Assembly (NCBI GenBank): GCA_030144725.1
Contig: JASKMD010000018.1
Location: 5,193,552 to 5,257,551, forward strand
DNA: 64,000 bases
Reading direction: 5' to 3'
Source of the DNA: Haematococcus lacustris
Taxonomy: Eukaryota; Chlorophyta; Chlorophyceae; Chlamydomonadales; Haematococcaceae
Positions 19,035 to 33,234 of this stretch are shown piece by piece. Every line of letters begins with the position of its first letter. Positions within the stretch are counted from its first letter, which is position 1. The translations under genes and the position numbers were made by a program. Below the pieces are notes generated by a model that saw only the letters and a program-made list of their open reading frames with translations, did not search any database and had not been told where the DNA came from.

Positions 19035-22000
19035 ATGATTGGGTGCGTGGAGACCCGCTTGGGCCTGGTCTGCCTACTTCTCTGCATTAGACTCCGTTGC
19101 GGGCGTTGACGGTAGCGCCCACCTGATACTTGATATTGCGTCGCAGGTGGATCAATTTATCGGTATGGCTTGTGCAAGCTGGCCAGATGTGTTGTGTGGT
19201 GCTTGTGACACGGCTTGTAATGCTTGCACAACAGGTTCAATGCTTCATAGTGAGAGCCTTTGGGGAGGATGCTTGGAATAAAGTAATTGCAGAAAGCAAT
19301 GTGGAGGTGGGCTGGGTATCCAGCTGCCCATATCCAGACAAAGTCACATACGAGTGAGTCGTGCAGCCAAGCCAGCCTTAACACGTGCATGGAACACATG
19401 TGTGTTGAACTGTCGTGCCAAGAAAGTATGGTTAGTGACACAGCATTTTTCTTGCTTCCACCTTTTGCAGCCTGGTCATCACAGCAGCAGGTATCCTGGG
19501 TGTCACAGTACAGCAGGCTCTTGAAGCCTATGGTGTCTTCTTTGTTGAGTGAGTGCTATAGCATTCAACTGGTTTGCAGTGGTGAGCAAGGCTGTGCTTC
19601 AGCCCCAGTCATCCTACCAAAAGCTAATTATGCCCTTGGCCCTCGTTAACCTTTTGCTGCAGTTACGTGACAGAGCAGGTACGGAGTGGATGCCACCTGG
19701 GTAATGTCACACTGTTTAATCCTTGCCTGCATGCATAGGCCGCTTGCAGAACATCACATGCTGTACAGCACATGCTGTACAGCAGATGCGAGCAATGCTT
19801 GATGCTGCACAGGGCTACACGAAACTGCTAAAAACGCTGGGCTCAACCATTGTTGAGTTGATGGCCAACCTGAACAACCTGCATCTCCATTTGAGCAACG
19901 GACAGCCTGCAATGGATGCCCCTGCTTTTCGAGTGGACAATGTGCGTAAGGCCAGGGGCAACCTGTGTGTGCTAGAAGGGCTTTGCTTCTGACGGTCTGT
20001 GAAAGAAACCTGCCTCTGACATGGCAACGAATGCATTCTGATGCATCAGATTCTAGCCATGTGCCGTGTGCAGGTGACAGAGGTCAGCTGCCACTTGCAC
20101 TACTACAGCAACCGTCCAGCTCTGTGGCCCATCGTTGTGGGTGTGCTCAAAGTAAGCAGAAGGCAACATCCCATCCGATCCCATCCAAGGACAAGTGTAC
20201 TGCAAGAATGCTATGAAAGCTGAAGACCTGCCCTTTCAATCACAGGGTCTGTCAAAGCAATACTTGAAGTATGACTTGACGGTGGAGCTGCTGCAGAGCA
20301 GGGACGACGGTCATGACCATGAGGTGGGCATGGCAGACTTCACCCCTGGCATGGAGTGACAGCCACAACCATGTGTCAATGGCATGGCTTAGAAGTTGAC
20401 CTGGTCATGGATCTGTCCGCTCGTGTCAGCCAAGATGGGGTTGCTCTGCGTGTGCAGGTCTTCTTGGTGGGCTACCCTCGCCAGACGCTCAGCAACCGAG
20501 TCAATAACTGTGGGGACAGCCAGCCGGAGGCAGCTGCAGCAGTGTCGCCATGCGCCTTCACCTTGTCCCCTGATCTGTTTGCGGAACTGCACCCCTTCCA
20601 TCTACTGCTGGACTGCAACTGCTCAGTGCTGCAGGTGAATGTGCCTTCCCCTTGTTTGACCAGCCTCATCATTTGTGCTGAACAGCATGCCCAAGTTTAC
20701 TCATGTCCATGCACCAGATGCATAGCCAGACTGTGTGTCCCTGCTGCAGTTTGGCAGCGTGCTACCACGGCTGGTACCTGGCATCGCTGTGGGCGCGCCA
20801 GCGGCGTCCTTGTTCAAAGTAAGCTCAGCACCTTGGCCCTCAGCCTTGAGCCTTCATTGCAGTCGAACACACTAATTGTGGACCACTACAAAACAGTGTT
20901 TTATCTGTGTGGTGTTCCCATCGCATGGCATGCTCATGGCCTACACATGGTATACACATGGCATACACATGGCATACACATGGTCATGGTCGCCTACCAC
21001 CTGCAGCATTGCCTGACCCGTTAGGGCTACACCGTAGAGTTGGCATGACAAAACATGCACTAATTGAAAGATGATGACAGCTTAAAAGGGGGGGCACACA
21101 CTACTGTGCCTCAGCAGGCTGCTGCTGGGCCTTGGGAGGCTTGTCTCGTAGCCGCTTGTAGCCCAGGCCAGGGTACTCCTTGCCCTTGGCTGGCAGCTTC
21201 CCCTGCTCTGGCCACCAGCACAGCTCCAACGGCCGCCACTTGCTCTCCCCAATGCGCTGCATGTTCAGTGCTGCATTGCAGTCCCTGTCCAGCCACCTGC
21301 CTGGCTGTGGGGCTGGCTTGGCTTTGGCAGCCTTGCCTTTGCCTGTGCCCTTGCCCTTGGTAGGTTGGGTGGGCTCTGCTGCCTCTGGCTCAGCCTTGGT
21401 GCGCTTGCTGCGCTTGGCTGGCATGGGACTGCTGGGCCCTGGCTCTGAGGCTGCAGGCTGTGTGGCTTGCTGGCTACTGCGTGGGGCCTGTGGGGGCTTG
21501 CGGGGGGCACAATCATTCTCTCGTTGTGCAAACCAGCGGTCAGCTACCCCATGCTGCTGGGCCAGTGACACCGTGCCAGTGTCCTGGCTGTTGGCAGTTG
21601 GTGCGGTTGCTTCAGGCTGGTGCAGGTGAGGGTCAAGTGGGGGCCAGAGCCTGAGGGTACGGGTGGGGTCAGGGGCTGGTGAGCTCGCACTCATGGGCTC
21701 AGATTAGGGTTTTGGCTCAAATTAGGCTCAATGTACCTCAAAGTTAGCTCAGCATCATGCGAAAAGTGTGGTAGCCACGTGACAAAGCAGCCTCACCAAT
21801 GCTGTATGTTCTATTGTAACCTCTGCCATACCCTTTACCGTCTGTGGTCATGCAACACATGGTTCTACTCCACATCTGCTGTCTTGCATGCCAGCACACA
21901 AAACGAAAGTTGCATGCATTGCACTCGTTGATGCCTTCTAGACACAGAGCTGCTGGCCTTGATCAGGCTGCTCTATTGTTCCTCCTGCACAGGTGCGCCA

Positions 22001-25000
22001 CCCCCACACTAAGCTGACCTGGGAGGGTATTGCCAAGGAGGTGGCATCTAGTTTTGTGCTGCAAGTTCCCTCTACCGGACTGGAGCTCAAGGGCCAGATG
22101 ATCCCCACACACATGCCAGTGCCTGGTAGGTGGTTTTGGCTGCAGACACTACCAGCTCAAAGCCCATGGTCGTGAGCAGCTTGAAACGTGCTAGTCTCAT
22201 GGCTTTCTCACCAGTGCTTTTCTGTGCTGGGCCTCCAGTACTACGCAAAGATCTAATGCGGCCCTGCATTTTCCCGCGACTCCAGGCATACTCAAGTTGT
22301 GCCTCAGCTAATGCTGATCCTAATGCTATATTAACTATGAACATTGCAATACACTTGGTGGCCCAATTGCTCGACTGGTGGGCATCATGCAGGCTGCCCT
22401 GTCCCTAAGCCCGTCATGCTGTTCATGGGGTCCCCTCGCTTGGCAAACCTCGACGAGATGATGCGCCACAAGCTGTACTGCTCTGACATCCCACTTCACG
22501 ACCTGTCGCGAGACTTTGTGCTGCTGGCAGAGCAGCGCCAGGCAGAGGCAGATCTGAAGGTGCGCTTGGCATGCAGCAGCATCTTTGCGCAACTGCACCT
22601 TGACTTCTACAAAGTGCCTTTATTAGAGTTCATATCTTCAAGCTGCAGTTTTGCAACGTCACACTTGCTTACAAGCCATGCCCCTGCAGGAGAAGTTTGA
22701 GAAGCTGACGGTTGAGATCCAGGCTGAAAAGATGCGCAGCGATGCATTGGTCCAGCGCATGAGCGGGCTGCTGGCCTGCTTCCCATTCAAGGGCGAGAAA
22801 GCAGCAGGTACTGTGCAGCAAATCAGGGCGGTAGCCCAGAACAAGAGCCGCAGGATGCAAGGCCCAGCTGGACCGCAAGCCGCCAATGTGGCGGATCATC
22901 CAGTGGCCAGTGATGAGACCAGCGAGGATGATGACCTGAACACAAGCAACTCCATGTCTATGACAACAATGCTGCATGGCGGCGATGAGTCACTGGGTGA
23001 GTGGCTGCTGTTGGGTGACATTGCTAAGCCACCAGCCTGCTATGGCCCCTGGACATGGAAGCCTTCAACAGTTTGATTGGCTGCATCAATACGGCAAGGT
23101 GCTCAGAACTCTGACATTATGGGGATGGCTGTCCTCAGAGATCAAGAAGGCAGTTCAGGGCTTCCTGCCTAAGGATACAATTGCACCACCATGCAGTGGG
23201 ACTGTGTTTGCCACTGTTTGTGTGCTTCAAACTTGGAACGCACATGACCGTCGCACATGATCTTAGTCTTACAAATTGCACCCTTTGACGGCGAGGCCCC
23301 CAACACATCCCCCGTCACATGCCTTGAGCTCTGCCTGGTGCCCTGCCTAGTCCCAGCCCAGCCAGCTTCCCTCGCTCGAGTCTGGGTGTGTAGATGGCAG
23401 TGTGAAGGCTGCACTGCTGCAGCACTTGCCCCTCCCAGCTGTTGAGAACGCTGGGATGGGTTCGGCAGCCTGTAGTCAGCTGGCTAGCCGGTTTGACAGC
23501 AAAGAGGCTATATGGTGAAGAGGCTATATGGTGAAGGCTCTTAGCCAAGCCCTTAACTAGCTTGCATAAAAATGCACCAAGGCAGGTTTGCAGGAGGCAG
23601 GTGTACAGCAAGTGGGCAGGATCCAGCTTCCCTCTGGGATGAGGATGTGCGCAGCAGCAGCTGCACCATTTGTCTAAGAGCTCATAGGCTCTGCCGTATG
23701 CCCCTGCCCAGGGCGCATGGAGGTCATTGAGGCAGTGCGCCGAACCCTTGGCAGCATGAACCTCAAGCAGAGCGAGCAGGACACCATCGAGTTGGTGCAA
23801 GCCATTGGCGAGGGCAGCTATGGGAAGGTGTGGCCTAGCGTACAATGTGCAACGTGTGCCCTGCGGTGCACGCTGAGTCCTTGCAATGTGTGTTGCAAAC
23901 TGGGCAGGTGTACAAGGCACTGTGGCAGGGCTCGGAGGTTGCTGTGAAGACAATCATGCTGCCCGCTACAATGAGTGGCAGCCAGAAACGCGAGAAAATG
24001 GTGGGGCCACCTCGCGCACCCTGTCCTGGCTCTGCATATTCTGCAAACCTGGGTGCTGGCAATGACTGCAGGCAATCATGGAGGCTGCCATCAGCAGCAG
24101 CTTGAGTCACCCCAACATCGTACAGGTTCGACTCGGTTTACAGCACCTTGGCCCTCAACCTTGAGCCTTCATTGCAGTCGAACACACTAATTGTGCACCA
24201 CTACAAAACAGTGTCTTTGTCTGTGTGGTGTTCCCATCGCATGGCATGCTCATGGCCTACACATGGCATACACATGGTCATGGTCGCCTACCACCTACAG
24301 CATTGCCTGACCCGTTAGGGCTACACCGTAGAGTTGGCATGACAAAACATGCACTAATTGAAAGCTGATGGCAGCATAAAAGGGGGGGGCACACACTACT
24401 GTGCCTCAGCAGGCTGCTGCTGGGCCTTGGGAGGCTTGTCTCGCAGCCGCTTGTAGCCCAGGCCAGGGTACTCCTTGCCCTTGGCTGGCAGAGCTCCCTG
24501 CTCTGGCCACCAGCACAGCTCCAACGGCCGCCACTTGCTCTCCCCAATGCGCTGCATGTTCAGTGCTGCATTGCAGTCCCTGTCCAGCCACCTGCCTGGC
24601 TGTGGGGCTGGCTTGGCTTTGGCAGCCTTGCCTTTGCCTGTGCCCTTGTCCTTGGTAGGTTGGGTGGGCTCAGCTGCCTCTGGCTCAGCCTTGGTGCGCT
24701 TGCTGCGCTTGGCTGGCAGGGGACTGCTGGGCCCTGGCTCTGAGGCTGCAGGCTGTGTGGCTTGCTGGCTGCTGCGTGGGGCCTGTGGGGGCTTGCGGGG
24801 GGCCACCACAGGGCACCACATCATGCCCCGCACCGGCAGGTCACGCTGCTGGCTCCAGGCTGGGCGCAGCAAGCGCTGTTCCACCTGCCCTGCTGGGGGC
24901 TTCCAGTTTGCAGGCCTGGTGGCCCTGCGCTTGTTCAGCTGCCTCTCACAGGGCTGCTGGCCATTCACCGCTGAGCTGACCCGGCTGGTGCGGTGCTCAT

Positions 25001-28000
25001 CCACAAGCACCACCCTACCCCGTCGCTGGTCTGTGCCCCTGGGCCTGACACCACCTTGCAGCAGGCACGCAGCACCGCATCAGCACCCCAGCCTCCCCTT
25101 GTGCCAATGCCAGCTGCTCCAAAGAAGACCACCAGCTGCTTGGCATGCCCATGGCGCTGCATGGACACCTCCAGAGGGCCGCACCTCTCTGTACAGCAGC
25201 TCAGCGAGTCTTCAGCAAGGGTCAGGGCCAGGGCAAGGGTCTCTCGGTTTATAGACTGACTCGGCGACTCGGTTTACAGCGGCAATAGATGTGCAACAGG
25301 AGCGCACCACACTCTTTAACATGCAAGAAGTTACACTGCAGCCTATGCCCTAACCCTCACGCATGAGAGTGCCTTCCTCATGTCTCCAGTGTGTGTGTCT
25401 TACCCTGTAGACGTACACCTACACCATCCAGCCCCTTCGTGAGACAGCAGAGTCCAAGCTGCAACGCATCAATGAACAAACACCATGTCAGCCCAATGCC
25501 AGGTGAACGGGCTCATTCCTCTTCACCGCTGCACTACACAATTGCCACAGTCTGTAAGCCTGCGCTTGACGCTCCGCTCTTCTGTGCAGTAGCCTCACTG
25601 ACAGCGCCTCCAAGGGAGCCATCACCAGCTATGAGGTGAACCTCCCCAACACAGCTTCCCACAGGTTTCCACCATGCACATGCACTGAAGGAATGAGCAA
25701 TTGACCCGGGTGGCATGGTGGCGGTGTGGGTACAGGTGAAGCTGGTGCTGGAGCTCTGTGACAGCGGCTCGTTGCGAGATGCCCTTGAGCAGGTGTGCAC
25801 TTCTGTGCCCTTACTGCTCCCTTAACCAGTGCCACCTGTACATCACAGCTGATTTCAACCGTGCTTGGAGTTTGCCTGCTGCTGTCACATCATGCGTCAC
25901 CGGCCTAGCTGAACACAGTGGTAAATCTTAACTGGACAGGCCCACACATTGCTCTGGCCACCTCCCATGCCTCCAATGCCAGGCAACCACTTGCGCCAGT
26001 CCTGCATGTGTTGATGGGTCCTGTGAGATGCCGTTGTCTGCTGTCAGGGTGCTTTCATCTTGCCAGACGCGACGCTGAACTACGCAGCAGTCCTGGACAC
26101 CGCAGCCGACCTGGCAAAGGCCTGCATTCACATGCACCGCCATGGTGTGCTGCACTCAGACATCAAGGCCAGGTCAGTTCATCTCAAGGCCACCCCGAGA
26201 ATAGCCACGTGTACACACTTCTTCCCGTCACTGCAGTGCATCAATAAATGTGATGCATCGGTAGCTGTGATACATCGTTCAATACTGCATTTATAAAGAG
26301 ACAAAAACTGCGTTGCAGGAATGTGCTGCTGCGGGGGTCTGGAGGGTCTGTTGGGCGTGGTGTGACTGCCAAGGTACAGTGCAAAGTTCCATTGGACAGG
26401 TCTGCTACAATGAAGAGGCTTGCATGCTGAAGCCAGCAGCCTGCCTGCCTGCCTGCCTCCCTCATTGCCTGTCTAGCTGGTTGTTGACAACTCTGCAAAT
26501 AGTGCCAGTCCGGTGTGATAGCTGACCTCATGTGTCCACAGTGCCAGGCCCTGAGGAAGGTGTTGGTTAGAGCTTTGTCGTACAATGGCTGCAGATCGCG
26601 GACTTTGGCTTAGCAGTCAAGCTGCCTCCTGGAGAGTCTTGCATTAACAACCTGTTCCAGGTATGTCCTGCAGGTCCTGCCAGCTTGCAGCAGATGTGGA
26701 CAATGGAAACTAGTGACAAAGCATACCTTGCCCTGCCAATGCAGGGAACCATCACCCACATGGCCCCCGAGGTTCTCAAGGACGGCTGCATCAGCAAGCA
26801 GAGCGATGTCTATGCGTTTGGAATCACGCTGTGGTGAGGTCAACAGGGGGTTACATGAAGCAGGCACGCCTTGCCATCGCACCTCTCTGGACATGAGTTG
26901 ATATGACGATGATGATGCTGACAATAATTGGACAACTTGCAGGGTTTGGGCTATATGCTGTCAGCAAATGCCTTGCTGGATCGCATGGGGAGGATGCCAC
27001 CCCTAGCAGACCTCTTAGGCAGGGTGTGATGTGGTGGCTCAGGTTCTGTCCACCACCCTGCCTGGTGCCATCCAGGGAGCTGTTCACAGGGGGCCATGCG
27101 TTCAAGGGCGTGCCCAAGTCCCTGCTGGGCCACCAGGTCATCAATGAGAACAGGTGAGGTACTGGCTGAAGTGGCCAGGATGGCAAGGGTGGTGGGGCAG
27201 GGAAGGGAAGGCCAGGGTGGGCCATGGCAAGGCAGGTGCAGCAGGGCGGAGCATTCTCAAGTATCACGAGACCTCCAGTGCCGCCCTTCACTGTTGTGTG
27301 CAGACGGCCTGAGTTTCCTCCAGGGACGCCTGTGCGGTACAAGCAGCTGGCAGAGTGGTGCTGGAACAAGGATGTCAACATCAGGTGATGCCACAAGCAG
27401 ATACTGATGTTGTCATAGGCTAGTCACTGAGAAACATGCTGAAGATGAAGGACACTGCTCAAGCAAAATGCCTGCACACCCACGGGGGCCACTGCAGTTG
27501 AAAGGCACCCAGTGGATGGGGACGACATGTGCAGCTGTGTTGCAGCTCTGTTGGTGCTAGCCTAGGCAGCGTATGCGTTGAGAACTTACCGTGAGTTTCC
27601 ATGGGCAGAAGGCACATGGCACACTGACATTGCACTTAACAAGCCGGGTATGGTTTGCGCAGACCCACCTTTGAAGAGATCCTAGCCCTGCTACTGTCCA
27701 TCCGACGTGAGATTGAGGGCTCCACTGCCCCCCTGCAGCCATTCCTGACGCCAGCTGACCAGCAGGCTGAAGAGCAGGCAAGGCAGGCGGAGCAAGCGCA
27801 CTCCGCGGCCACAGCTGCTCCCGCTGGCCATGCCGACCCTGCCGGCCTCGCAGTACGTGATTTTGTCAGCCACCTAACACATGATCGGCCATCTGGCAGC
27901 CACACAGCCACGGCAGCTGGCATCCAGGTTGGCCGCACATCCCTGTCTCAAGTCAGCATGAACCAGCAGCCACGGCAGACGCCAAGCCTCCTTGGCCCTG

Positions 28001-29663
28001 GGGTAAGTGGGCTACAGCATCAGGTACAGCATCTTGGCCCTCAACCATGAGCCTTCATTGCAGTCGAGCACACTAATTGTGGACCACTACAAAACGGTGT
28101 TTTTTCTGTGTGGTGTTCCCATCGCATGGCATGCTCATTGCCTACACATGGCATACACATGGCATACACATGGCATACACATGGTCATGGTCGCCTACCA
28201 CCTACAGCATTGCCTGACCCGTTAGGGCTACACCGTAGAGTTGGCATGACAAAACATGCACTAATTGAAAGCTGATGACAGCTTAAAAGGGGGGGCACAC
28301 ACTACTGTGCCTCAGCAGGCTGCTGCTGGGTGGGGGGAGGCTTGTCTCGCAGCCGCTTGTAGCCCAGGCCAGGGTACTCCTTGCCCTTGGCTGGCAGCTT
28401 CCCCTGCTCTGGCCACAGGCCGCAGTGTGGGTGGTGCTGGGGCAGGCTCTGGCTCAGGGTCTGGGTCTGGCTCAGGCTCCCAGTCCATAGCCATGCTGGC
28501 TGGCTGGGCAGGGGCACGCAGGGGGAGTGGGGGTAGGGGTGCAGCACCAGGGGCTAGGGGAGGCTGCACGGCTGGAGGCTGAAGGGCGCTGCGGAACCCC
28601 GGGGTGGAGTAGCCCACCAGGCACGTTAGGAAGAGTTTGAGCACACATAGCGACGCAATCACGCGGAGCTGAGAATGGATCTCGGCCCGTAGCTGGAAAT
28701 GTTCCTTCAGCTTGCGTCGGGTTTTCTTGCACCCTCGCAGCACGGCGCCACCCGGGACTTTGATGACCTGCGGCCAAGCAACATGACAGGCAACATTGAC
28801 AGGCCGGGAAACAATGCGGGGACACAAACAATGCAGGGGCAGTCAAGGCAGGGGCGCGTGGGCACCTGTCGGCGCTGGGTCTTCCATTGAGCCCTTCGCT
28901 TCTCGCGTTGTTTGCCTGGAGGGGTGCTAGGACCTATGCTGGCATGAACAGTAGCGATGTGAGCAGCAACATGTGTAGTGTGACCCATACATGTATGTTT
29001 TGTGCTGCAGGCGAGATCCATCCCTGTATCATTTCCTGAGTGTGAAGCAGACACCGGGGACGCCATGGGTGCCAGCGTCAGCTTCATCCCCAGCGACAGT
29101 GACAGCGGCTACAGCAGTGATGGCCAGCCCACGTCCAGCATGCCCTTTGCCTCCATCACCTCCCAGTCTCTCCCCCGGCAAGGTCATACGCAAAGCGTCC
29201 AAGCAACGGTGAGCTGGTGTGTCACATGTCAAGGTGGAGGCTTCATGCAACTTTCTAAGACACCCTATTGCCTGAAACTCATGGCAGCAGACAGTCTGTA
29301 CTCGGTGGCTACTGGGAAATGGCATGCGTGCTCAACACTCACTCAAGCCCCCTCTCACTAGCAAAGCACTGCGCTCGCTCTATGTAGCTACAGGAATGCT
29401 AGGAGCAATATCAAGTTCATCACAAATCTTGAGTACAACCGTTTGTTGTAGCTTCCCTCAAGCTCATCATGAGGATGTGTCAGGCTATGCATCAAACACC
29501 TCTTGCATACGTCCTCGTGCTCCTGTCACTGCCTGCTGCTGCCTCTGCACCCTGCCATGTGTAGCAGGTGCGACCAGCCATGGTGGCAGTAGGACTGGCG
29601 CCTAGAGACGAGCTAGAGAAGAGTTTGAGCTACATGCCAAGCGACAGCGAGGACGACATGTGA
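19035..29663 (+). CDS. H-NOX / HNOBA / protein kinase fusion: candidate heme-based gas-sensing kinase
   Basis: After a tentative first exon at 19,035, 26 exons join in frame from 19,235-19,353 to 29,568-29,663 (TGA), giving 978 residues. Residues 1 to about 180 form an H-NOX domain: EAYGVFF; the proximal heme-ligand histidine in NNLHLHLS; and a YxSxR heme-contact motif in LHYYSNRPALWP. About 200-400 is the HNOBA domain of soluble guanylate cyclases (LFAELHPFHLLLD, LELKGQMI, SDIPLHDLSRDFVLLAEQ), then a helical linker (EKFEKLTVEIQAEKM). Instead of a cyclase there follows a kinase of TKL/Raf-like type at about 475-765: glycine loop GEGSYGKV, lysine in EVAVKTI, catalytic loop LHSDIKARNVLL (HSD in place of HRD), IADFGLAVKL and HMAPEVL. 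The tail is acidic and serine-rich (PSDSDSGYSSD, PSDSEDDM). The key joint is exon 22,690-22,996 to 23,712-23,827, phase 1 on both sides. The kinase exon also has an ATG at 23,717, so a separate kinase gene is the main alternative. Likely ligand, NO or O2, is inferred from the family. Confidence 0.85.
20830..21738 (-). mobile_element. Fanzor-derived insertion 1 (antisense, in intron)
   Basis: A 909-bp insert with a 15-bp target duplication, CAAAGTAAGCTCAGC, at 20,815-20,829 and (one mismatch) 21,739-21,753. On the minus strand it encodes the C-terminal part of a Fanzor protein: a Lys/Pro/Ala-rich linker, then WLDRDCNAALNMQRIG and YPGLGYKRLRDKP, stop TAG near 21,100. The RD-C-N motif corresponds to the RuvC-III block of TnpB and Fanzor nucleases. 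Everything upstream of that is missing or unrelated. The duplication spans the exon end and splice donor at 20,818/20,819, so the donor survives on the left copy. Confidence 0.85.
24145..25264 (-). mobile_element. Fanzor-derived insertion 2 (antisense, in intron)
   Basis: A 1,120-bp insert with a perfect 16-bp target duplication, CGACTCGGTTTACAGC, at 24,129-24,144 and 25,265-25,280. It starts with the same left-end sequence as insertion 1 but reaches further into the gene. The minus strand codes for HAKQLVVFFGAAGIGT, WGADAVLRAC, VLVDEHRTSRVSSAV and WLDRDCNAALNM, with at least one frame change near 25,010. It lies in a kinase-domain intron, 19 bases after the 5' splice site. The right end (CAGCAAGGGTCAGGGCCAGG) resembles sequence at 14,023-14,042. 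Confidence 0.85.
28031..28420 (-). mobile_element. Fanzor-derived insertion 3, short (antisense, in intron)
   Basis: It begins with the common tail (ATCTTGGCCCTCAACCATGA) directly after CAGC, 28 bases past the 5' splice site at 28,002. It keeps only the last part of the Fanzor frame, minus strand (GKEYPGLGYKRLRDKP, at about 28,312-28,417), and then changes to unrelated sequence. The sequence from 28,420 to about 28,890 is open on the minus strand (a KTRRKLKEHFQLRAEI-like segment and a D-P-E-P repeat) and may belong to the same or another element. I could not find a right-hand target duplication, so the far boundary is unknown. Confidence 0.65.
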
Positions 29664-29798: not shown

Positions 29799-30801
29799 TA
29801 GGGTTGGCCAGAACCGTAGCGGCGTATATACGTAGGTACGTATATACAGTATATACGTAGCGTACCCCGACCACCGTGTATCCGTAGGCAGCCGTAGGTA
29901 CGTCGGTTGACCGTACAATACCGTAGGTTTGACCGTAGTTTTCACGCTTGAACCGTACACGCGACGGCAAAATCGCGAGATTGCAAAGGACGCAGGACGC
30001 ACAAGTCACCGTTACTGCCGGTTAGGCCGTAACCGCGGGTCATATATAAGTCGCTGCGATACCCGATGGCATTCATTGCGTTGTATGATGCATACGAGAG
30101 ATGTGGCGACCGTATAAGTGCTAGCCGAGCTCACAGCCATGAAGCGGAAGGGCAGCGCCAGCTTCTGGAATAAGCTTGAGCCTGTGCTGCACCAATCGCA
30201 TACGAGGGCCCAGCCAGCACAGTTGCATACGAGGGCCCAGCCCAGCCCAGCCCAGCCCAGCCCAGCCCAGCCCAGCCCAGCCCAGCCCAGCCCAGCCCAG
30301 CCCAGCCCAGCCCAGCCCAGCCCAGCCCAGCCCAGCCCAGTGCTGTTACAAGCATGCCTGGAGGTGGAGGAGGAGGAGGAGGTGGTGATGTTGTAGAGAA
30401 AGCTAGCGCGAGGGGATTAAACCGTGCACACATGTTTACAGAGTAGGCACACATGGTTTACACATGGCCACACATGCGTGGCACACATGATTGGTCGAGT
30501 AGGCCCATGGCTGACTACACAACTGCACCCACGGCTGGCACATGCTTGGCGCACAGAGTAGTTCTAAGCACATTGCTAACGGCATGCATGGCTGGCTGGC
30601 ATATAGATGTGTCATGACACTGCTATTGGTTATGCTTACCCCTAGCGGGCGTTTCTATAGTTGTTGTGCACCAAACTACATACTCACTTTCGCAAAATGA
30701 TGACCCTGCCCCTACGGAATACCCTACGGAACTACGAATACAGTAAATACGTATGTATATACCGTCTTTCTAGCCGCCACATACGGATCTGGCCAACCCT
30801 A
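29799..30801. mobile_element. Non-autonomous hAT-like transposon, 1,003 bp
   Basis: The perfect 8-bp target duplication AGCATGAC is at 29,791-29,798 and 30,802-30,809. Terminal inverted repeats read TAGGGTTGGCCAGA(A/T)CCGTA, and both ends are followed by repeated CGTATATAC-type motifs. No transposase is encoded. The element contains an AGCCC pentanucleotide array and lies 135 bases after the stop of the H-NOX kinase gene. Confidence 0.9.
30236..30340 (+). repeat. (CCCAG)n pentanucleotide array, 21 units
   Basis: A pure tandem array of CCCAG inside the hAT-like element at 29,799-30,801. Confidence 0.95.
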
Positions 30802-31184: not shown

Positions 31185-33234
31185 GCATCACAAAAAGACC
31201 TCGTGCAACTTTCAAGTCCTAATTGAACACAGGCTGCAAGCTCATCACTTTGTTACGGCTGTAGCTCTAATGCCCACTTCAGCTCAGCCATTCTGGTGTG
31301 TGTGCCTGTAGCTAGAGCCCTAGCTAGCCCTAGCTAGCCTGTAGTCAGGTTAGACAAGCAAGTCAAAAAGGCCCCATTTTCGGACGGACCTAACTAACTC
31401 TATGCACCACTCACGATGTTGCACGCCTTGCCGCAGCGCCGCACACGCTAGCTTCGGCTTACAGGGACAGGACTACGGTGATCGACTGGTCCGCGACCCC
31501 GTCCAATGTTCGACGCAGTGGTACGCAATGTCAGAAGCACTCCATCTCTCTGGTTATGCGCCCTGGAGTAGGTGTGCTGTCGCGGCGATGTCAGGGTGCC
31601 TCCTGGGTGTCGAGCTCTGTGAGTTGCATGCTGCTTGCTAGGGGCTTGTCTCATGGCCGGGTTGAGGGGGTACGCCACGAGGCTTTGGACCTAAATTTTT
31701 TCTCAGCAGCTAGCTGTACCACACACTTACACCCTGGCGCTGATTTGACCTCGTCATGCATCATCTCGGTCAATAGCGAGGGTGGTGAGGGACACACTGC
31801 CAGAACACACTGCGCTCGGTTTCCTCGATGTTCTATGCGGTAAAAAAGTTTTGCGAGGTCCCATGCAGAATCGCAGGCCATTTCGAGCACATTTTTCATT
31901 TTGCCCCCATACTTTTTATATAGATGAAAAAAGCTAAGACTCGGCCATGCTAGGGACCTTTTCCCCGAACTGAAGTCGTTTCAGCCCGCCATAACTATAA
32001 CAATAGTAGCGACGACCCTACTCCTGCCGTCGGAGTCGGCGATGGACCTTTCGGTCAATGATAGCCGCACTTGAAGCATTTCAAGCTATGACCCATTGCT
32101 CGAAGCGAATCCTTGCTGGGTCCGCGCGTATGGCTGAGCGTTTAGCCACTGGCCGTGCTCCTTGGTCCCGTACTGCTGGCTCCATCGCTGAACAAGCCCA
32201 GGCAAGGCAGCCCAGCCCCAGCTCCACCGTCATCAACAAGCATATGTCCTCACCTGTCCTTGTCCAGCCCAGCATGATGTGTTGCATTGTGTTCTCATGC
32301 GCTTCACGCTACAGAACAGCATCTACAAGCAGTGCTGGAAGAGCATGCACGGGAGAAGCGAGACTGGCAGCAGCAGCATCAGCAGGACTGGCAGCAGTGG
32401 CATTATAACCACATCATCGCCCTGGGTGTTCGGGTGTCTCCTGGGTGTCCTGCACTACCCTGCCCTGTCTCTTCAGGCCCCGCCCAGCCCCGCCCAGCCC
32501 CGCCCCGCCCCGCCCAGCCCAGCCCAGCCCAGCCCAGCCCAGCCCAGCCCAGCCCAGCCCAGCCCAGCCCAGCCCAGCCCAGCCCAGCCCAGCCCAGCCC
32601 AGCCCAGCCCAGCCCAGCCCAGCCCAGCCCAGCCCAGCCCAGCCCAGCCCAGCCCAGCCCAGCCCAGCCCAGCCCAGCCCAGCCCAGCCCAGCCCAGCCC
32701 AGCCCAGCCCAGCCCAGCCCAGCCCAGCCCAGCCCAGCCCAGCCCAGCCCAGCCCAGCCCAGCCCAGCCCAGATTATACAGGAGAAACCTCACCCCACTA
32801 TGACTCTGTGCATAAGCAGATGCAGCCTTAAGCTACTGCTAGTAACTTCCCAACATGCCGTGATGATGACATACGGAGCAGTATCAACCTCTGTGCGCAC
32901 GCCGTGATGCAAACACTGAAATGTTGCTGGGGAGTGTGGTTTCGTTCGATGAAGGCGTCGGCGGCGGCTGGAAAGTGGACTTCCATGCATCTATTTTCTC
33001 TTTTCTCCGTCCATTGGAGACGCGTTTGAATTCATGCACATGGGCGATCTCTTCTCTCTTTTCTCCGTCCATTGGTAACGCGCTGATAGGGCTATGTGCA
33101 AATCCGCAGGCGGCGCTTCTCAAAAACGCTGTTATTGATTTGCCTGAGTGGACATGGCGTGAGTCAATCTCTTGGTGTAGTAACGTGGCTCGGTAGCATG
33201 GCGCACTGCGATGGCCTGCGGCGCACTACGAGGC
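31185..33234. other. Region without a secure gene; one possible exon
   Basis: Frames here are short and no domain was recognised. A plus-strand stretch at 32,313-32,430 has an acceptor (CGCTACAG), codes for [20 protein letters not shown] and ends at a GT. It could be one exon of an unidentified gene, perhaps from a transposon. The rest contains the long pentanucleotide array described separately, and two ATCTCTTCTCTC/TTTTCTCCGTCCATTGG repeats at about 32,996-33,080. Confidence 0.4.
32511..32772 (+). repeat. (AGCCC)n pentanucleotide array, about 52 units
   Basis: A nearly pure AGCCC array of about 260 bases, preceded by degenerate CGCCC units from about 32,478. It has no stop codons in several frames, so the long Pro-Ser-Ala and Gly-Leu-Trp-Ala frames here are artefacts of the repeat. 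Confidence 0.95.

What the first reader, a model, noticed from the sequence alone, without database searches (positions are those of the whole stretch)
19035..29663. Single gene fusing H-NOX, HNOBA and a protein kinase: a gas-sensing kinase built like soluble guanylate cyclase
Seen: 26 exons with perfectly compatible phases encode an H-NOX domain (proximal His in NNLHLHLS, YxSxR in YYSNR), an HNOBA domain, a helical linker and then a complete TKL-like kinase (GEGSYGKV, AVK, HSD, DFG, APE). Known: in animals H-NOX and HNOBA are followed by a guanylate cyclase; in bacteria H-NOX acts on separate histidine kinases. I know of no described eukaryotic protein in which a Ser/Thr-type kinase takes the cyclase position. 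Inference: binding of NO or another gas would control phosphorylation directly. The first, roughly 11-residue exon is uncertain.
Basis: partly seen in the sequence, partly recalled or inferred. Interest (0 to 1): 0.93.

Follow-up and report, generated by a model that had tools for sequence, protein, structure and literature searches.

The report
Nitric-oxide receptor wired to a kinase
A green alga's gene joins the sensor half of the animal nitric-oxide receptor to a protein kinase, so its product would likely pass on a gas signal by phosphorylating proteins instead of by making cGMP, and relatives of the gene occur in at least three other green algae.

Summary
The window lies in Haematococcus lacustris. 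At 19035-29663 (+) there is one gene of 28 exons, 986 aa, with H-NOX, HNOBA, a signalling helix and a protein kinase. Three genomic copies keep all exons open (dN/dS 0.07-0.10). Conservation falls exactly at the splice donor 22996 and returns at the acceptor 23712, which argues against two genes. Eleven related proteins, three from named green algae and two from transcript collections, join the same sensor to the same kind of kinase. The kinase sits where sGC has its cyclase, joined within the signalling helix; similar kinases are membrane receptors with a like helix. The sensor tree rejects a single origin: Chlamydomonas eustigma gained its kinase separately. H-NOX/HNOBA-phosphodiesterase fusions also exist, one of them in H. 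lacustris, where I found no H-NOX cyclase. Nine literature searches found no description of an H-NOX kinase. Heme binding, ligand (NO or CO), direction of regulation and substrates are untested. I rate it a real and surprising new variant of the sGC-type receptor, not a new category.

The parts
19035..19042 (+). exon 1 (coding part, 8 nt; ATG, phase 2 out)
   Evidence: GT donor, identical in 3 copies
19147..19162 (+). exon 2, 16-nt microexon; with exon 1 gives MIGWINLS
   Evidence: AG/GT, identical in 3 copies; matches N-termini of P0009, P0017
19235..19353 (+). exon 3, H-NOX
19471..19548 (+). exon 4, H-NOX
19663..19678 (+). exon 5, 16-nt microexon, H-NOX
19813..19941 (+). exon 6, H-NOX with proximal His H103
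   Evidence: PF07700 exon hit
20074..20151 (+). exon 7, H-NOX, YxSxR heme motif
20246..20323 (+). exon 8, H-NOX end
20458..20634 (+). exon 9, H-NOX/HNOBA link and start of HNOBA (PAS-like)
20750..20818 (+). exon 10, HNOBA
21993..22125 (+). exon 11, HNOBA
22393..22559 (+). exon 12, HNOBA core (SDIPLHDLSRDFVLLAEQ) and start of signalling helix
   Evidence: PF07701 exon hit
22690..22996 (+). exon 13, signalling helix and linker
   Evidence: helix compared
22997..23711 (+). intron 13, between HNOBA/helix part and kinase part; in-frame stop at 23074 lies in diverged sequence
   Evidence: divergence step at both ends; reading frames
23712..23827 (+). exon 14, pre-kinase helix (VIEAVRR) and glycine loop
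23908..24000 (+). exon 15, kinase, catalytic Lys K511
24072..24125 (+). exon 16, kinase, helix C Glu (MEAA)
25411..25502 (+). exon 17, kinase, insert
25590..25635 (+). exon 18, kinase, insert
25736..25792 (+). exon 19, kinase hinge
26048..26172 (+). exon 20, kinase, HSD catalytic loop
26319..26373 (+). exon 21, kinase
26595..26660 (+). exon 22, kinase, DFG
26745..26833 (+). exon 23, kinase, APE
27076..27153 (+). exon 24, kinase C-lobe
27304..27384 (+). exon 25, kinase C-lobe
27663..28002 (+). exon 26, end of kinase and variable tail (24 nt shorter in the 3.06-Mb copy)
29011..29208 (+). exon 27, Ser-rich tail
29568..29663 (+). exon 28, tail and stop codon

Best explanation
This locus holds one 28-exon gene whose spliced reading frame joins an sGC-type H-NOX and HNOBA sensor, through a signalling helix, to a complete protein kinase, and its product likely works as a cytosolic dimeric nitric-oxide (or carbon-monoxide) receptor in which gas binding would switch protein phosphorylation instead of cGMP synthesis. 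Shown by sequence: the single conserved reading frame, the domains, an intact heme-ligand motif, intact catalytic kinase residues, and the same sensor-kinase joint in 11 related proteins (10 with H-NOX; one lacks that end). Inferred: heme binds at H103; NO or CO on the heme rotates the H-NOX/PAS block and straightens the helix pair, as seen in sGC; the paired kinase domains are thereby brought into, or out of, a conformation in which they phosphorylate each other and a Ser/Thr substrate. A kinase with HSD in place of HRD (a non-RD kinase) would not need activation-loop phosphorylation in the usual way (recalled), which suits control from its N-terminal side. Direction of regulation and substrates are unknown.
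Against: No RNA, heme or kinase data for this protein. The helix is followed by a variable stretch of about 75 residues before the conserved VIEAVRR helix and kinase, so rigid helix transmission is not assured. The model is of modest confidence (mean pLDDT 62.6, pTM 0.33; parts of the helix and the linker below 50) and the match to whole sGC beta1 has rmsd 17 A, so domain placement is not predicted. The algal cyclases CYG12 and CYG56 showed no NO response in vitro and CYG11 responds to CO (PMC8728061 passages), so NO is not assured. The HRD Arg is missing. Of the 11 relatives several are cut: P0004 and P0020 stop in the first part of the kinase, P0016 in the second, P0021, P0027 and P0032 start inside H-NOX, P0151 after it. 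Monophyly of the main kinase group has only 86/83 support, only after four long-branch cyclase rows were left out, and the kinase tree does not show it.
Confidence: 0.72

Rival explanations
1. Same fused receptor kinase, but the physiological signal is not NO: it is carbon monoxide, or heme availability/redox state.
For: C. reinhardtii CYG11, an H-NOX cyclase, is activated by CO and works as a homodimer, and CYG12 and CYG56 showed no NO response in vitro (PMC8728061 passages).
Against: The residue aligned with human beta1 I145 is I142 (numbering of human beta1 recalled); lack of a distal Tyr is the recalled mark of NO-selective, O2-excluding H-NOX; sGC beta1 is the best solved relative. None of this separates NO from CO.
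Confidence: 0.25
2. The kinase is a scaffold or is constitutively active, and the H-NOX part only localises or dimerises it.
For: HRD Arg replaced by Ser; long variable linker between helix and kinase.
Against: Lys, helix-C Glu, catalytic Asp, DFG and APE are all kept; dN/dS of the kinase part is 0 to 0.04 and of the sensor part 0 to 0.047 in the three pairs, so both ends are constrained; heme-ligand residues are invariant in the 11 aligned rows.
Confidence: 0.12
3. Two neighbouring genes: an H-NOX/HNOBA gene ending near 23,000 and a kinase gene starting at the ATG 23,717.
For: A 715-bp gap with an in-frame stop at 23,074 and a possible ATG just after the acceptor.
Against: Conservation stops at the GT donor, 77 bases before that stop, and the stop lies in sequence diverged 12%; no TGTAA (recalled algal polyadenylation signal) in the gap, though none follows the gene to 31,500 either; fused relatives, two from transcript collections.
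Confidence: 0.03

Closest known systems
Soluble guanylate cyclase beta1 subunit (animals) and H-NOX/HNOBA cyclases of C. reinhardtii and its relatives (CYG11, CYG12 type)
   Same: H-NOX, HNOBA and signalling helix in the same order; human beta1 matched over aa 1-368; 56% identity to the C. reinhardtii cyclase P0003 over the whole sensor
   Different: A protein kinase stands where the class III cyclase stands; no PF00211 match
Membrane receptor kinases of green algae, several with a CHASE domain (e.g. P0061, P0066, P0074), TKL-like
   Same: Kinase domain 54-55% identical over nearly its whole length in e.g. P0037, P0039, P0046, like helix motif before it and an IExxRR element
   Different: Sensor between membrane-like segments instead of H-NOX/HNOBA
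Bacterial H-NOX with separate histidine kinase, and cyanobacterial HNOBA-histidine kinases (2p04 type)
   Same: H-NOX or HNOBA coupled to phosphorylation; HNOBA of a histidine kinase matched at 1.7e-12
   Different: Histidine kinase, in the H-NOX case a separate protein (recalled); here a eukaryotic-type protein kinase in one chain
H-NOX/HNOBA-phosphodiesterase proteins (P0030 of C. eustigma, P0026; H. lacustris C127)
   Same: Same sensor with a non-cyclase output
   Different: Class I PDE as output; none of my searches listed a paper on these
HRI, the heme-regulated eIF2alpha kinase (recalled, not tested)
   Same: Eukaryotic Ser/Thr kinase influenced by heme and its gas ligands
   Different: No H-NOX or HNOBA domain (recalled)
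Acanthamoeba H-NOX proteins without cyclase (PMC4053784, passages)
   Same: Eukaryotic H-NOX not joined to a guanylyl cyclase
   Different: No kinase fusion is described in the passages read

Membership tests
H-NOX (heme-NO/O2 binding) domain | HNOB profile over the whole domain | tested here: met
H-NOX (heme-NO/O2 binding) domain | proximal His and YxSxR heme-carboxylate motif | tested here: met
   H103, Y132-S134-R136; invariant in the 11 aligned rows
H-NOX (heme-NO/O2 binding) domain | binds heme and a gas | not testable with these tools
   needs protein
Soluble guanylate cyclase | H-NOX, HNOBA (PAS) and coiled coil in this order | tested here: met
Soluble guanylate cyclase | C-terminal class III cyclase domain | tested here: not met
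   no PF00211 match in the 986-aa protein at E 0.01; protein kinase there instead
Eukaryotic-type protein kinase, TKL-like | kinase profile with Lys, helix-C Glu, catalytic Asp, DFG, APE | tested here: met
   PF07714 5.3e-47, PF00069 4.9e-43; residues
Eukaryotic-type protein kinase, TKL-like | nearest solved kinases are TKL group (MLK, TAK1, ZAK, CTR1) | tested here: inconclusive
   MLK4, MAP3K9, TAK1, ZAK and CTR1 are among the best by sequence, but EGFR ranks first and Src family members are close
Eukaryotic-type protein kinase, TKL-like | phosphotransfer to Ser/Thr | not testable with these tools
   needs assay; DxKxxN is recalled as the Ser/Thr pattern
Signalling-helix (S-helix) linked receptor | helix of about 40 residues between sensor and effector, as in sGC | tested here: met
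   motif shared with the 8 algal cyclases looked at; one helix 338-396 in the model of P0017, partly at low pLDDT
Signalling-helix (S-helix) linked receptor | parallel coiled-coil dimer | not tested
   no dimer was modelled
Bacterial H-NOX/HnoK two-component system | histidine kinase | tested here: not met
   protein-kinase families only; no histidine-kinase family at E 0.01

The most novel reading that the evidence does not exclude
In chlorophycean algae the sensor of the animal-type NO receptor has been unplugged from cGMP synthesis and plugged, inside the signalling helix, into other outputs: into a receptor-type protein kinase at least twice, and into a cyclic-nucleotide phosphodiesterase. 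In H. lacustris both detectable H-NOX genes have these outputs and no H-NOX cyclase was found, so NO (or CO) would act there by phosphorylation and by cGMP breakdown: gas signalling without a gas-sensitive cyclase.
Probability: 0.45. Interest if true: 0.92.

Novelty: new variant of a known kind. Interest (0 to 1): 0.82.

Why it matters
In animals the NO receptor speaks through cGMP. A survey cited in PMC8728061 (passages) found none of more than 1000 green-lineage species with all parts of the classical NO/cGMP cascade, so how algae read NO is open. A one-protein H-NOX receptor kinase gives a direct candidate and a testable prediction (NO changes phosphorylation without cGMP). It would also show that the sGC sensor-helix block is portable: the same block stands before a cyclase, a kinase and a phosphodiesterase, which makes natural swaps available for asking how the helix transmits the signal.

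Tried and rejected
Two-gene reading: rejected on the divergence steps and the fused relatives. Chance or pseudogene: rejected (3 of 3 copies open, dN/dS 0.07-0.10). Independent paralogs: the window runs collinear, with gaps, with the 1.56-Mb place over nearly its whole length (116-63990) and with the 3.06-Mb place over 98-37910 of the window (no piece of 500 bases or more in order beyond that within the 66 kb fetched). They are not three separate gene inventions. Single origin of all H-NOX kinases: rejected, p-AU 6.5e-11 with 32 rows and 9.7e-71 with 38 rows.

Rows dropped: of 41 proteins with the sensor, one search used 38 (left out P0001, a cut duplicate, P0002, a double protein, and P0036, no H-NOX). 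One search used 32 (left out also P0023, P0024, P0025, P0029, P0034 and one of two identical Haematococcus rows). With those four cyclase rows in, they joined the Haematococcus rows at 91/89 and the kinase group needed 3 changes, a result against a single main group; they have a full-length helix without the 14-residue loss and a long branch, so I think that join is false but it is not excluded. Kinase tree (quick method): 9 H-NOX kinases, 3 kinase-PDE proteins, 71 others; the H-NOX kinases fall in three places (Haematococcus with P0016, P0069, P0077 at 94; P0009, P0017, P0021, P0027 at 99; P0032), 3 changes, of which starred branches force only 1. This too is against a single main group and would allow three fusions. 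P0004, P0020, the cut P0001 and the two other Haematococcus copies were not used there; P0151 was found later and is in no tree.

TGTAA signals: uninformative. Structure: only P0017 was modelled, since the tool admits only proteins read from the window or fetched loci or returned by search and the spliced protein is none of these; no dimer, no heme.

The H-NOX cyclase absence rests on exon-by-exon searches of one assembly: (3 matches; 6 matches; 6 matches) and with a C. reinhardtii cyclase sensor (28 of 28 matches at E up to 1 lie in the C74 kinase or C127 phosphodiesterase genes). PF00211 exons are plentiful elsewhere (128 matches, 150 of 307 candidates scored). A gap in the assembly could hide one.

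Literature: 10 searches of the held library, nine of them on H-NOX/HNOBA/NO with algae or kinases, one on Haematococcus ploidy; by title and start of abstract none of the listed papers describes an H-NOX kinase. Long result lists were cut, and most subscription journals are not held, so this is not proof. Papers: passages read of PMC7617258, PMC4858519, PMC2828450, PMC4053784, PMC2576301, PMC8728061, PMC6839917, PMC1592074; all others only as search listings.
Full report
WHAT IS THERE. The window is part of a 7.15-Mb contig of a 308-Mb genome; a protein record on a contig of the same length, QJQ45_009127, names it Haematococcus lacustris, a chlorophycean green alga. On the + strand, 19035-29663, I find one gene of 28 coding exons with GT-AG introns and matching phases, 986 aa. 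The NCBI model P0001 lacks this start and begins at the ATG in exon 6, but makes the same sensor-kinase joint.

DOMAINS. Pfam gives HNOB (aa 3-162, 1.7e-37), HNOBA (best stretch 284-380, 4.1e-28) and protein kinase (485-783, 4.9e-43; PK_Tyr_Ser-Thr 5.3e-47), and no cyclase. Human sGC beta1 matches aa 1-368 at 1.3e-51. Heme-site residues H103 and Y132-S134-R136, and kinase residues K511, E532, D649, D674 are present. The catalytic loop reads HSD, a non-RD form; 9 of the 11 rows aligned reach this loop and all 9 read HSD or HGD.

IS IT ONE GENE. The genome holds three copies, within the gene mostly 91-97% identical. All three keep the frame (986, 978 and 986 aa) and 27 of 27 GT-AG introns. dN/dS is 0.070, 0.095 and 0.081. 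By part, window against the 3.06-Mb and the 1.56-Mb copy: sensor 0 and 0.047; helix plus linker 0 and 0.053; kinase 0 and 0.040; tail 0.128 and 0.284. The sensor-kinase joint is marked by sharp steps: 2.1% difference up to the donor at 22996, 12.3% in the next 81 bases, about 10-14% through the intron, 0.9% from the acceptor at 23712 (window against the 1.56-Mb copy). With the closer 3.06-Mb copy the steps are weaker (1.6%, 4.9%, then 2.2%, 0.5%, 0.9%), too few changes to decide alone. The in-frame stop at 23074 lies beyond the conserved stretch.

RELATIVES. (sensor query) lists 36 proteins: 24 with a cyclase, 7 with a kinase domain by Pfam (one of them the Haematococcus P0001), 2 with a phosphodiesterase, and 3 with neither by Pfam, of which P0004 and P0020 carry the first part of the kinase by a profile comparison and P0034 does not. 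(kinase query; 120 of 886 listed) adds P0069 and P0077; (120 of 187 listed) adds P0151 (HNOBA and kinase; the H-NOX end is missing). So 11 proteins outside Haematococcus have the fusion, 10 of them with H-NOX; several are cut at one end. P0017 and P0077 come from transcript collections (EukProt/GHUV and MMETSP by their labels). All rows named C. reinhardtii, C. schloesseri, C. incerta, Volvox, Gonium, Pleodorina, Astrephomene or Edaphochlamys carry a cyclase.

ORIGIN. On the sensor tree with 32 rows the 11 kinase rows other than C. eustigma (9 relatives, 2 Haematococcus copies) form one side of a branch (86/83, not starred), and C. eustigma's kinase (P0032) pairs with its own phosphodiesterase fusion P0030 (100/99); one clade for all 12 kinase rows is rejected, p-AU 6.5e-11. 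With 38 rows four long-branch cyclases join the Haematococcus rows and the kinase group needs 3 changes. A shared loss of 14 residues in the helix in Haematococcus, P0004, P0016, P0020, P0069 and P0077 (6 of 11 rows aligned), absent from those cyclases, favours the kinase grouping. The kinase tree (83 rows, quick) sets P0032 apart and also splits the main group in two, mostly without starred support. I read this as at least two fusions; three are not excluded.

THE JOINT. Cyclases and H-NOX kinases share the signalling helix up to the LLYxM or ALxxRM position; the 8 cyclases looked at continue LPxxxA, the H-NOX kinases SGLIACFP or a variant of it (P0032: RQYELIACIS). Of 15 other kinases that I picked from the 120 listed, 15 have membrane-like windows (14 two or more, 1 one) and 12 show a like motif, such as ...EEKLRLDALLVRQYNL, before their kinase by the pattern used; 0 of 11 H-NOX kinases have such a window. 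So the swap was probably made inside a helix that both parents shared. The 14-residue loss equals two heptads and would keep register. Signalling helices were described before histidine kinases, phosphatases, cyclases and others (PMC2828450, passages); the terms protein kinase, threonine kinase and tyrosine kinase do not occur in the held main text of PMC1592074.

HOW IT MOST LIKELY WORKS. [quoted passage not shown] The same sensor and helix here stand before a kinase. I infer a homodimer in which gas binding re-sets the kinase pair. Which gas is open: I142 stands at the human I145 position (human numbering recalled), but C. reinhardtii CYG11 is CO-activated and CYG12/CYG56 were not NO-sensitive in vitro (PMC8728061 passages).

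WIDER SETTING. H. lacustris has a second H-NOX/HNOBA gene on C127, followed in order on the same strand by phosphodiesterase exons (1523580-1533838 in one copy; a PF00233 exon hit beside each of three copies). No H-NOX cyclase was found although cyclase exons are common. If the search is complete, both H-NOX genes of this alga bypass cGMP synthesis.

NOVELTY. Nine literature searches on this subject listed no paper that by title or start of abstract describes an H-NOX kinase; public records hold such proteins unremarked. Modular sensor swaps are known in bacteria, so I call it a new variant of a known kind, with high interest.

Noticed in passing
G000:C127:1523580-1533838 (+), with further copies near 7.534 Mb (+) and 0.497 Mb (-): A second H-NOX/HNOBA gene in H. 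lacustris leads into class I phosphodiesterase exons, like P0026 and C. eustigma P0030, with a shared SPAxKxxxxLxKxxxGxxV linker. The third copy was not fetched.
   Followed up: partly
window 24129-25280 (intron 16): An insertion of about 1.1 kb, absent from both other copies and flanked by the 16-bp repeat CGACTCGGTTTACAGC; its minus-strand frame has DRDCNAALNMQRIG and a sub-threshold Cas12f1-like TNB match (PF07282, E 0.015), which recalls Fanzor/TnpB-type elements (recalled).
   Followed up: partly
window 20826-21720 and 28027-28966 (introns 10 and 26): Related repeat copies of the same family lie in two more introns of this gene.
   Followed up: no
window 116-63990 against C74:1521000-1588500; window 98-37910 against C74:3024000-3089999: The window is collinear, with gaps, with two other stretches of the same contig, about 87-99% identical in pieces; the assembly seems to carry three homologous versions of the region on one contig.
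   Followed up: partly
P0117, P0128, P0141 (C. eustigma): Proteins that join the same kind of kinase to a phosphodiesterase (PF00069 with PF00233), so kinase and phosphodiesterase outputs are also combined in one chain.
   Followed up: no
window 30235-30340 and 32463-32772: Short tandem repeats, apparently of 5-base period from the shifted matches, also near the other copies.
   Followed up: no
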